Assembly: GCA_017619355.1 (NCBI GenBank)
Contig: JAFZSO010000003.1
Location: 20,949-84,948, forward strand
DNA: 64,000 nucleotides
Direction: 5' to 3'
DNA from: Muribaculaceae bacterium
GTDB lineage: Bacteria; Bacteroidota; Bacteroidia; Bacteroidales; Muribaculaceae
The number at the start of each line of letters is the position of its first letter. Positions within the stretch are counted from its first letter, which is position 1. Below the pieces are notes generated by a model, which saw only the letters and a list, made by a program, of their open reading frames with translations, searched no databases and was not told where the DNA came from. The position numbers were made by a program, and so were the translations under genes. Shown piece by piece: positions 62,182 through 64,000 of this stretch.

Positions 62182-62213
62182 TTTGCTTTTTTACACATTA
62201 TATATTAAATTTG
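62182..62213 (+). promoter_or_regulatory. Bacteroidetes-type promoter
   Basis: TTTG at 62182-62185 and TAAATTTG at 62206-62213 with a 20-base spacer fit the consensus closely. Transcription would begin near 62220, about 260 bases ahead of the next start codon, and would first produce the structured segment described at 62218-62430. Confidence 0.78.
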
Positions 62214-62217
62214 CAAT

Positions 62218-62430
62218 TGTTCATGGATGTTACTGCTCACGAACAGACTTTTTGGTAAACTAAAAAGCGTTTGCTTATCTCTTGTTGAGAGAATATAGGA
62301 AATTTTTACAATGATGAGAGGGTAACAAAGCGATTCTCGCGTTATAGCGTGAACTGTTGTTCCCATATTTTCATCAATGGTTTTATCCGACCATCTCAAC
62401 AAGTGTGACGAATCAGTCCACGCTTTTTTT
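62218..62430 (+). ncRNA. Candidate structured RNA or attenuated leader
   Basis: About 210 nt between a consensus promoter and an intrinsic terminator, without an ORF. Pairings I can see: TGTTC/GAACA (62218-62222 with 62241-62245); CTTTTT/AAAAAG (62248-62253 with 62262-62267); a long-range perfect 9-bp helix TTGTTGAGA (62282-62290) with TCTCAACAA (62394-62402); inside it GATGA/TCATC, GGG(T)AACAA/TTGTTCCC and TTCTCGC/GCGTGAA around loop GTTATA. The nested helices form a rod with a large internal bubble, somewhat as in 6S RNA. It may be an independent small RNA or a riboswitch-like leader of the gene at 62483. I do not recognise the family. Confidence 0.5.
62402..62430 (+). terminator. Intrinsic terminator inside the leader of the BspA/Ig-like gene
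   Basis: AGTGTGAC (62402-62409) pairs with GTCCACGCT (62416-62424) with one bulged base and one G-T pair, 6-base loop, followed by seven T (62424-62430). Its first base abuts the long-range helix 62282-62290/62394-62402, so the two structures are in contact. The gene at 62483 begins 53 bases later. Confidence 0.7.
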
Positions 62431-62482
62431 CTCGTTTTTAACCGCCTTTGAGGACTGCAATGGCATGCAATGATTGCGCAAT

Positions 62483-64000
62483 ATGAAAACCAATCGCAAA
62501 CACATCACTTCAATCCTGGTGATAATCCTCCTCGCCACACTCGCACACAACACTTACGCATATTCCTTTATGGTCAATGGTATTGCCTATGATTATAACA
62601 GCGATGGTACCTCAGTTTCAGTTGTTTCAGGTGGCAATTATTTAGGTGAAATAATTATACCTTCATCGGTAGCCTATAATGGTATATTATATTCAGTCAC
62701 CAGAATTGGAGCATTTGCGTTCTATAACTGCAGCAGTCTAACTAGCATTACTATCCCTAAACCTGTCATAGCAATAGGATGGAATGCTTTCTATGGTTGC
62801 ACGAGTCTAACATCAGTAAATTGGAACGCTGAGAATTTTATAACTCCATCAACGGAGAATGGTGTGGCTATTAGTGATATTCCTTTTTTTTATGTTAAAG
62901 AGAATATTACCTCATTTAATTTTGGAAGCAATGTAAAAACTATACCAGACTATATATGCGATGGGATGATAAAACTATCTCATGTAACTATTCCAAATAC
63001 AGTCACATCCATTGGTGCTAGAGCATTCTCGGTTTGCACGGGCTTGACAAGCATCACTATTCCTAACTCCGTTGTCACCATCGGCAACTATGCCTTCTCG
63101 GCCTCTAGCGGATTGTCAAGCGTGACCATTCCCAACTCCGTTACCACTATCGGCCAGTATGCGTTCATGGGTTGCAGCGGACTAAATAATCTTTATTGTA
63201 ATATTCAAAACCCCAATCAAGTTACCCTGGGAAGTGATGTGTTTTTAAATGTTCCTAAACAATCGTGTATTCTTCATGTCCCATCTGGTTCCAAAGAACT
63301 TTTCGAGAACGCAGCCCAGTGGAAAGAATTTAATACCATTATTGATTATATCGGAATTAAGTTGAACAAAACTTCAACAAGCATATTTGTGGGTGGTACT
63401 GAAACGCTGATTGCAACTGGTACACCTAGTGATGCGTTCATCAATAATCTCTCATGGACCTCCAGTGCCCCAAATGTGGCCTCCGTTGACCAGGACGGTG
63501 TCGTGACAGCAAATGCTCTTGGAACAGCAGTCATTACTGCGACAACCACCGACGGCACCAATCTCAGCGCCTCGTGTACGGTAACAGTGAAAGAAGTTCC
63601 GCAGGTTACCCTGAACAAGAGCTCGACAAGCATCTATGTGGGCGGCACAGAGACGCTGACAGCAACGATCACCCCGAGCGATGTAGTCATCAAGACACGA
63701 ACATGGTCCTCCAGCAACCCAAATGTTGCTACGGTTAATCAGAACGGAATTGTGACAGCAAAAGCGCTAGGAAATGCAACAATCACCATTAATGCCACGA
63801 CTTCCGATGATATTGATCTCAGCGCCTCTTGCACTGTGACAGTGAAAGGAATCACTAGAGTTACCCTGATCAAGAGCTCGACAAGCATCTATGTGGGCGG
63901 CACAGAGACGCTGACGGCCACGATTACCCCGAGCGATGTGATCATCAAGACACTCTCATGGACCTCCAGTGCCCCAAATGTGGCCTCCGTTGACCAGGAC
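62483..64000 (+). CDS. BspA-like / BIG2-repeat surface protein (3' end outside window)
   Basis: An open frame of 506 codons runs from ATG 62483 to the window edge with no stop. It starts with a signal peptide (MKTNRKHITSILVIILLATL, ending near AYS). LRR_5 repeats follow (GAFAFYNCSSLTSITIPK, AFSVCTGLTSITIPNSVVTI, AFMGCSGLNNLYC), and from about residue 290 tandem BIG2 Ig-like modules of 83-85 residues (SSTSIYVGGTETLTATITPS ... SSNPNVATVNQNGIVTAKAL). The first and third modules share identical DNA stretches. Likely a surface adhesin or binding protein; ligand unknown. Its transcript leader may be the structured segment upstream. Confidence 0.85.
   Translation, partial: MKTNRKHITSILVIILLATLAHNTYAYSFMVNGIAYDYNSDGTSVSVVSGGNYLGEIIIPSSVAYNGILYSVTRIGAFAFYNCSSLTSITIPKPVIAIGWNAFYGCTSLTSVNWNAENFITPSTENGVAISDIPFFYVKENITSFNFGSNVKTIPDYICDGMIKLSHVTIPNTVTSIGARAFSVCTGLTSITIPNSVVTIGNYAFSASSGLSSVTIPNSVTTIGQYAFMGCSGLNNLYCNIQNPNQVTLGSDVFLNVPKQSCILHVPSGSKELFENAAQWKEFNTIIDYIGIKLNKTSTSIFVGGTETLIATGTPSDAFINNLSWTSSAPNVASVDQDGVVTANALGTAVITATTTDGTNLSASCTVTVKEVPQVTLNKSSTSIYVGGTETLTATITPSDVVIKTRTWSSSNPNVATVNQNGIVTAKALGNATITINATTSDDIDLSASCTVTVKGITRVTLIKSSTSIYVGGTETLTATITPSDVIIKTLSWTSSAPNVASVDQD

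What the first reader, a model, noticed from the sequence alone, without database searches (positions are those of the whole stretch)
62182..62482. Promoter, about 200-nt structured segment, then terminator: a candidate undescribed RNA or riboregulator
A close match to the Bacteroidetes promoter consensus (62182-62213) is followed by an ORF-free segment with nested helices (perfect 9-bp long-range helix, an 8-bp helix with one bulge, and an apical 6-bp helix) and ends in an intrinsic terminator at 62402-62430. The terminator lies 53 bases before a surface-protein start codon. This is either a free small RNA or a leader that controls read-through into a BspA/Ig-like gene. The rod with a large internal bubble recalls 6S RNA, but I do not recognise it as any known family.
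Basis: partly seen in the sequence, partly recalled or inferred. Interest (0 to 1): 0.72.

Follow-up and report, generated by a model that had tools for sequence, protein, structure and literature searches.

The report
Bacteroidota-wide multi-copy structured leader RNA
The stretch is one copy of a large, intricately folded RNA that gut bacteria and their relatives carry, often several times per genome, at the very start of the messages of unrelated surface and accessory genes; it is not in the Rfam collection and probably controls how those genes are expressed.

Summary
Promoter, nested helices and U-tract hairpin are in the sequence; Rfam 15 has no match at its thresholds. Homologues occur in 300 of 397 genomes of the family, 116 of 393 of the order and 28 of 247 of the phylum, with up to 24 copies per genome and 5 in this one. 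Compensatory change is strong: 50 of 55 pairs, 904 double-change cells against 293 shuffled; ten pairs beat every tree-based null. An ATG follows, median 50 nt after the core, in 119 of 128 representatives: a 5' leader, not 6S RNA. Downstream genes are unrelated (87 Pfam families over 119 proteins) and include mobile cargo. Most likely it acts in cis on the full-length mRNA; signal and level of control are not shown. Outside Bacteroidales 14 of 28 loci lack a near ORF.

The parts
62182..62213 (+). Promoter: TTTG (62182-62185), 20 nt, TAAATTTG (62206-62213); start of transcription inferred near 62219, not measured
   Evidence: TAnnTTTG upstream in 108 of 128 representatives
62217..62246 (+). 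5' hairpin near the expected transcript start (TGTTC 62218-62222 x GAACA 62241-62245, by eye), then the linker to the core
   Evidence: the region folds better than shuffles across 103 homologues (mean -9.5 vs -4.4 kcal/mol)
62263..62429 (+). Core RNA, match to model R2 positions 1-169
   Evidence: 126.3 bits, E 3.7e-26, the only match in the window at E<=10
62262..62269 (+). P0 5' strand (AAAAAGCG), pairs with 62421-62428 (CGCTTTTT)
62270..62280 (+). PKa 5' strand (limits approximate), pairs with about 62319-62330 between P3 and P4
   Evidence: (columns 22-79 above all nulls)
62281..62290 (+). P1 5' strand, pairs with 62394-62403
62294..62302 (+). P2 5' strand, partner in 62381-62391; weak in this copy
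   Evidence: window pairing -3.3 vs consensus -12.1 kcal/mol
62312..62319 (+). P3 5' strand, pairs with 62369-62376
62329..62358 (+). P4, apical hairpin
62401..62430 (+). P5 hairpin (about 62401-62407 x 62419-62425) followed by a T-run: terminator-like, and in conflict with P0 and P6
62414..62419 (+). P6 5' strand CAGTCC in the loop and 3' arm of P5, pairs with 62452-62457
62444..62464 (+). P7 hairpin whose loop shows GGACTG (62452-62457); its pairing partner is 62414-62419
   Evidence: predicted fold -5.7 kcal/mol; P6
62458..62482 (+). 25 nt between the P6 partner and ATG
   Evidence: median 22 nt, IQR 19.5-26, in 103 homologues
62483..64000 (+). Downstream ORF (open at window end): BspA-type LRR and Big_2 surface protein with signal-peptide-like start
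   Evidence: Pfam LRR_5 3.2e-39, Big_2 4.1e-28

Best explanation
The element is a cis-acting structured 5' leader of the BspA/Ig-like mRNA and a member of a large, multi-copy leader-RNA family of Bacteroidota. Shown by comparison: a compact fold made of a rod (P1, P2, P3, P4) closed by P0, with pseudoknot PKa, plus a downstream hairpin P7 whose loop pairs (P6) with the loop and 3' arm of P5; the whole lies at a nearly fixed distance from the start codon. Inferred: it works mainly on the full-length mRNA. P6/P7 and P0 draw the P5/U-tract strand into the fold and leave about 22 nt, AU-rich next to the ATG, free for the ribosome, so the leader sets translation initiation and/or mRNA stability of whatever gene follows. 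In lineages with a T-rich tail, such as this one, P5 plus the T-run may also stop part of the transcripts early. The signal, if any, is unknown; because the downstream genes are unrelated, a general expression or condition sensor fits better than a metabolite riboswitch for one pathway.
For: Covariation: 50 of 55 pairs with two-sided changes, 89.1% of cells paired vs 69.1% shuffled, 904 double-change cells vs 293 shuffled and 134-157 slid; ten pairs with no null pair as high in 20 tree-based nulls, in P1 (5), P2 (3), PKa (1) and P3 (1); own partners beat swapped partners for P0, PKa, P1, P2, P3, P4 and P6, while three control segment pairs (z 1.4, -0.4, 1.0) and the P6 control (z -1.4) do not. 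Position: ATG-started ORF in 119 of 128, in those 45-54 nt (IQR) after the core; P6 partner ends 22 nt (IQR 19.5-26) before ATG in the 103 of 119 with a P6 score of at least 13, where the last 15 nt before ATG are 77% A+T. Promoter box upstream in 108 of 128. Signal-peptide-like starts, by a simple rule, in 85 of 119 downstream ORFs vs 45 of 169 other ORFs of at least 100 aa in the same loci.
Against: No transcript, ribosome or mutant data. The ~22-nt gap is close to the commonest 5' UTR length reported for B. thetaiotaomicron (23 nt; PMC7366714, passage), so fixed spacing may only mean that the leader sits in front of an ordinary initiation region. The tail after P5 has at least 5 T of 8 in 46 of 48 own-family and 57 of 77 other copies, which attenuation would also predict. 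P5 itself covaries weakly (swap z -2.7). Of 128 representatives 9 have no ATG-started ORF of 60 aa within 140 nt, and among 28 loci mostly of other orders and classes 14 have none within 160 nt. This copy has a weak P2. The P6 score threshold is also reached by 60% of shuffled targets, so P6 rests on the swap test (z -10.5) and on its paired variants.
Confidence: 0.55

Rival explanations
1. Transcription attenuator or riboswitch: a ligand or condition shifts folding between P5 with its T-run (stop) and P0/PKa forms (read-through); the terminator is the output.
For: P5 plus a T-rich tail in most copies (at least 5 T of 8 in 46 of 48 own-family and 57 of 77 others); P0 and P5 compete for the same 3' strand; strand 38-44 can pair either in P1 or with 54-61 (P2b, swap z -5.0), as in a switch.
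Against: Tails such as TTCGTGGT in 7 of 77; the 3' strand is already explained by P0; P6/P7 are kept although they lie beyond the T-run and would emerge too late to prevent termination (inference); downstream genes share no pathway.
Confidence: 0.25
2. Processive antitermination RNA that acts on RNA polymerase in cis (like put or EAR elements, recalled), helping poorly translated or horizontally acquired genes to be transcribed in full.
For: Sits directly behind the promoter box of accessory, surface and mobile genes; large compact fold; indifferent to the gene.
Against: Nothing here tests polymerase binding; many downstream ORFs are short (median 167 aa for complete ones); P6/P7 near the start codon has no role in it.
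Confidence: 0.1
3. Cassette or recombination site: the element is copied or shuffled together with, or in front of, accessory genes, and its fold matters as DNA.
For: Copies on plasmids, one phage record and 8 viral contigs; same-strand pairs 1-2 kb apart (G147:C18; G585:C931 and G136:C295); cargo of many kinds.
Against: Promoter box and near-fixed ATG distance point to RNA; G-U pairs are common in the helices, which suits RNA; of 94 loci with up to 1.5 kb on each side only two, which share one place (L153, L171), hold a second copy. No integrase was looked for.
Confidence: 0.07
4. Free small RNA (6S-like or base-pairing) that ends at the T-run.
For: Promoter, fold and T-run; 14 of 28 loci, mostly of other orders and classes (for example L229, L300, L304), have no ATG-started ORF of 60 aa within 160 nt.
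Against: In the Bacteroidales set an ATG follows at 45-54 nt (IQR) in 119 of 128 (nine have none) and P6 joins the core to sequence beyond the T-run; own genome has Bacteroidales-1 elsewhere; no Rfam match at threshold.
Confidence: 0.05

Closest known systems
Riboswitches and other structured 5' leader RNAs (as a kind)
   Same: Long conserved fold directly behind a promoter and before a start codon; pseudoknot; possible terminator
   Different: No Rfam match at threshold; downstream genes share no pathway; up to 24 copies per genome; conserved hairpin contact beyond the T-run
FopS/GibS paralogous sRNAs of Bacteroides (PMC11697453, passages)
   Same: Multi-copy RNA family of gut Bacteroidales with sigma-ABfr-type promoters, also seen in a phage
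   Different: FopS is a single-stranded 5' stretch plus terminator hairpin and acts in trans; this is a ~170-nt pseudoknotted core in front of an ORF
Bacteroidales-1 (RF01693) / 6S-Flavo (RF01685)
   Different: Own genome has a separate Bacteroidales-1 gene (107.2 bits); no match of the element to either model
Flavo-1 (RF01705; PMC9723704 passages)
   Same: Widespread motif of Bacteroidota, some copies in transcribed 5' regions
   Different: No match in 17 member loci, including those from other orders, at E<=0.5; Flavo-1 hits there lie on either strand
put / EAR processive antitermination RNAs (recalled)
   Same: Compact RNA behind a promoter, indifferent to the gene
   Different: Polymerase effect untested; conserved contact near the start codon

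Membership tests
Any Rfam 15 family | Score at or above the gathering threshold | tested here: not met
   0 matches in the window and in 20 loci of members; at E<=10 on the window copy 7 matches, all far below threshold; at E<=0.5 on 17 further loci a tRNA and a weak ROSE_2 match, both outside the element
6S RNA / Bacteroidales-1 | Match to the family model | tested here: not met
   own genome's Bacteroidales-1 lies at C71:11869-12055
6S RNA / Bacteroidales-1 | Free transcript that binds RNA polymerase | not testable with these tools
   no transcript or binding data
Riboswitch | Conserved covarying aptamer-like fold in a 5' leader | tested here: met
Riboswitch | Downstream genes linked by one metabolite or pathway | tested here: not met
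   87 Pfam families over 119 proteins, commonest LRR_5 in 8
Riboswitch | Direct ligand binding | not testable with these tools
   needs in-line probing
Riboswitch / attenuator | Expression platform: conserved intrinsic terminator with a competing structure | tested here: inconclusive
   P5 and T-rich tail common but not universal; P0 and P6 compete for the same strand
FopS sRNAs | Single-stranded 5' seed followed by one terminator hairpin | tested here: not met
   member fold is ~170 nt with P0-P5 and PKa; FopS description from passages
Flavo-1 | Match to RF01705 | tested here: not met
Integron attC site | Paired core boxes and a linked integron integrase | not tested
   no integrase or box search was made
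Processive antitermination RNA | Makes RNA polymerase read through terminators | not testable with these tools
   needs a reporter assay

The most novel reading that the evidence does not exclude
A portable expression module: a phylum-wide, gene-indifferent leader RNA, with its own promoter and a pseudoknotted fold that ends at a near-fixed distance from the start codon, which Bacteroidota and their mobile elements place in front of accessory, surface, defence and resistance genes to bring them under one shared, so far unknown, RNA-level control in a phylum whose translation does not rely on Shine-Dalgarno pairing (recalled).
Probability: 0.35. Interest if true: 0.9.

Novelty: new variant of a known kind. 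Interest (0 to 1): 0.77.

Why it matters
If right, a much repeated structured leader RNA of gut bacteria has been missing from the main RNA library. It would tie many unrelated accessory genes (119 were scanned here: surface proteins, defence-like genes, mobile cargo) to one RNA-based control in a phylum where post-transcriptional control is poorly known. Five copies in this genome, and copies on plasmids of Bacteroides and Parabacteroides, make it directly testable with existing genetics and transcriptome data.

Tried and rejected
6S/Bacteroidales-1 identity: rejected. FopS and Flavo-1: rejected. Pathway-specific riboswitch: made unlikely by the unrelated downstream genes. Hairpin AAGC/GCUU at the 5' end (used in R1): replaced by P0 and PKa, which use the same bases and covary. 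Stand-alone-only RNA: not supported for the Bacteroidales copies; left open for copies of other orders, where an alignment of 17 loci showed no extended well-conserved 3' domain (by eye). A search for 16S rRNA in the own genome, meant for testing complementarity to ribosomal RNA, found none in this incomplete assembly; the idea was dropped. Paralogues in three copy-rich genomes looked alike, by eye, from the promoter region to P7, which does not separate function from copying. Literature: five subject listings, two further listings, one listing on Prevotella riboswitches (19) and a search for four sequence strings (79, no paper) showed no description of this element. What I saw of papers: PMC8040213 abstract/outline, passages and section 7; passages of PMC7366714, PMC2864571, PMC9723704 and PMC11697453; term searches without a hit for Bacteroidota names in PMC11109978 and PMC8632094. 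Supplementary files could not be read, so a candidate from the 3161 motifs of PMC8040213 may overlap it.

Limits of the counts: genome searches over 40 genomes used strict filters and scored only 7-11 candidates per genome; copy numbers are lower bounds. Thresholds differ: E<=0.01, E<=0.001. No genomes outside Bacteroidota were searched with R1 or R2, so specificity rests on the window and on genomes of the order without a match (10 of 14). A7 was aligned to a model that already held P1-P5; P0 and PKa were not in that model. The first alignment used 27 of 30 loci then held, window copy included (L024, L025, L032 left out). The 144-sequence set left out reverse-strand chance matches, one match cut at a contig end (L159), L205, the sister type L067/L068, duplicates of the same place, loci L209-L221 (fetched but not scanned), and the viral, phage and two plasmid loci. 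One search mislabelled five own-family copies as other families; one search recounts. The tree-based null and the signal-peptide rule are my own scripts; the downstream ORFs there had a 60-aa floor, the comparison ORFs 100 aa.

Full report
What is there. The window copy lies at G000:C27:83211-83377 in a draft genome of 2.63 Mb. Titles of contigs with the same motif, some of the same length as contigs of my loci, read Muribaculaceae, Prevotellaceae, Porphyromonadaceae or Bacteroidales MAGs, one of them Candidatus Sodaliphilus; that the own family is Muribaculaceae is inferred from these. The fold is better than shuffled sequence (z -2.5), which alone would be weak evidence. Rfam 15 has no match at its thresholds in the whole window, and only weak matches at E up to 10 for the element.

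Homologues. A DNA search of 200 relatives found matches in 76; the long ones cover the core, many others are short stretches outside it. From 27 sequences, the window copy included, I built a covariance model, R1. R1 finds the RNA in 300 of 397 genomes of the family, in 116 of 393 drawn from the order and in 15 of 296 drawn from the phylum. A broader model, R2, from 79 sequences finds it in 28 of 247 genomes of the phylum, including other orders and classes, and in 24 of 36 relatives, 20 of them among the 22 genomes of the own genus. The large searches score few candidates per genome, so these are lower bounds. With up to 150 candidates scored, copy numbers reach 24 (G684), 19 (G136), 17 (G585) and 14 (G596). 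The own genome has 5 copies with R2; behind them, by eye, are two BspA-type proteins, a Sel1-repeat-like protein and two others. In the window R2 finds this copy alone. Named carriers include plasmids of Bacteroides finegoldii, B. uniformis, Phocaeicola massiliensis and Parabacteroides distasonis, and a Prevotella replicon.

Structure. On 79 structure-aligned members 50 of 55 named pairs have changes on both sides that keep the pair; 89.1% of cells pair, against 69.1% after shuffling and 38-48% when partners are slid; double-change cells are 904 against 293 and 134-157. A separate test on 144 sequences, with nulls that replay each column's changes on a tree, leaves ten pairs with no null pair as high in 20 nulls: five in P1, three in P2, one in P3 and one in the pseudoknot PKa. 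PKa was in no earlier model; its key pair is U-A in 39 and A-U in 30 of 79, though its outer part pairs in only 59% of cells. Swapping strands between members weakens P0 (z -6.4), PKa (-11.4), P1 (-43), P2 (-18), P3 (-42), P4 (-14.5) and P6 (-10.5), but not three control segment pairs or the P6 control. P5, the terminator-like hairpin, shows only z -2.7. Relatedness can inflate such z values.

The strand after the terminator-like hairpin (CGCTT...) pairs with the 5' end of the core (P0). Beyond the T-run a small hairpin (P7) shows GGACTG or a variant that pairs with CAGTCC or its counterpart in the P5 loop and arm (P6): CAGTCC/GGACTG, CAGTTCC/GGAACTG, GTTGTCCC/GGGACAGC, TGGCTCA/TGAGCCA and others. 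The score cut used there is also met by 60% of shuffled targets, so P6 rests on these paired variants, the native median of 17 against 13, and the swap test. P2 joins two segments that could each be the loop of a small hairpin (GAAA...UUUC and GGU...ACC), so a loop-loop contact is possible; that reading is inference. In the window copy P2 is weak, so this copy may be diverged or slightly decayed; P0, PKa, P1, P3, P4 and P6 can form.

Position and cargo. In 119 of 128 representatives an ATG-started ORF of at least 60 aa follows; the ATG lies a median of 50 nt (IQR 45-54) after the core and, in the 103 with a P6 helix, 22 nt (IQR 19.5-26) after the P6 partner. Nine have none within 140 nt. The downstream proteins match 87 Pfam families, the commonest being BspA LRR_5 in 8 of 119, with single cases such as a MUN beta-lactamase, a lincosamide nucleotidyltransferase-like protein and defence-like genes. 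Signal-peptide-like starts, by a simple rule, occur in 85 of 119 against 45 of 169 other ORFs in the same loci. On pBUN1 the element lies between mobV and its cargo gene, and on a Parabacteroides plasmid behind an AAA ATPase, a toprim protein and a hypothetical protein and before a DUF4433 gene; reading that block as a mobilization region is inference.

How it most likely works. It is a cis-acting leader. Because P6/P7 can form only when the polymerase has gone well past the T-run, the conserved full structure belongs to the read-through mRNA; this argues that the main output is translation or mRNA stability. Against this, most copies keep a T-rich tail (46 of 48 in the own family, 57 of 77 elsewhere have at least 5 T of 8), so partial early termination is possible, above all in the own family. 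The fixed spacing is compatible with both, since B. thetaiotaomicron mRNAs most often have 5' UTRs of 23 nt (PMC7366714, passage). I give the translation/stability reading 0.55 including the leader claim itself, which I hold at about 0.9 for Bacteroidales.

Outside Bacteroidales. Of 28 loci read (one of them of the same order, one further locus cut short), 14 have an ATG-started ORF of 60 aa within 160 nt (for example L223, L232, L299, L305, L321) and 14 do not (for example L229, L300, L304). Whether the latter are free RNAs or long leaders is open.

Novelty. I found no description in the listings named in Tried and rejected, but supplementary tables could not be read. As a structured leader RNA it is of a known kind; its size, pseudoknot, copy number, spread over a phylum and indifference to the gene set it apart from the known families I could test.

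Noticed in passing
L067 (1501-1707, -) and L068/L322 (C67:12780-12984, -), own genome: A diverged sister type of the same RNA (AGAAAGCGTTTTTGC...GGCATGCCGA) in front of another BspA-like gene and of a further ORF; R1 scores it weakly (4.2e-4, 0.11), R2 at 2.6e-9 and 3.4e-8.
   Followed up: partly
L248 4001-4273 (B. uniformis pBUN1): The leader lies between mobV and an annotated beta-lactamase gene; described only.
   Followed up: no
L249 4001-4202 (Parabacteroides distasonis plasmid): The leader follows genes for an AAA ATPase, a toprim protein and a hypothetical protein and precedes a DUF4433 gene.
   Followed up: no
L229, L304, L307, L310, L312, L319 (other orders): Homologues with a promoter box and T-run but no near ORF; ATTCTTAGC recurs shortly after the T-run and could pair with the 5' GCTTAGAAT or GCTTTGAAT (by eye).
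   Followed up: partly
L267, L268, L270, L271 (genome G684): Four similar small secreted proteins (158 aa each), each behind its own copy of the leader.
   Followed up: no
L153/L171 (G147:C18), L277 (G585:C931), L278 (G136:C295): Two same-strand copies 1-2 kb apart: small arrays.
   Followed up: no
L088: A contig labelled Oscillospiraceae MAG carries an exact motif match; mis-binning is likely, as the other 43 titles are Bacteroidales-type.
   Followed up: no
L001 (G000:C71:11869-12055, -): The genome's own Bacteroidales-1 RNA, 107.2 bits.
   Followed up: no
L119, L125, L129, L142, L145 downstream ORFs: A recurrent secreted protein type with the motif FLGIPVDG or close to it follows the leader in several genera.
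   Followed up: no
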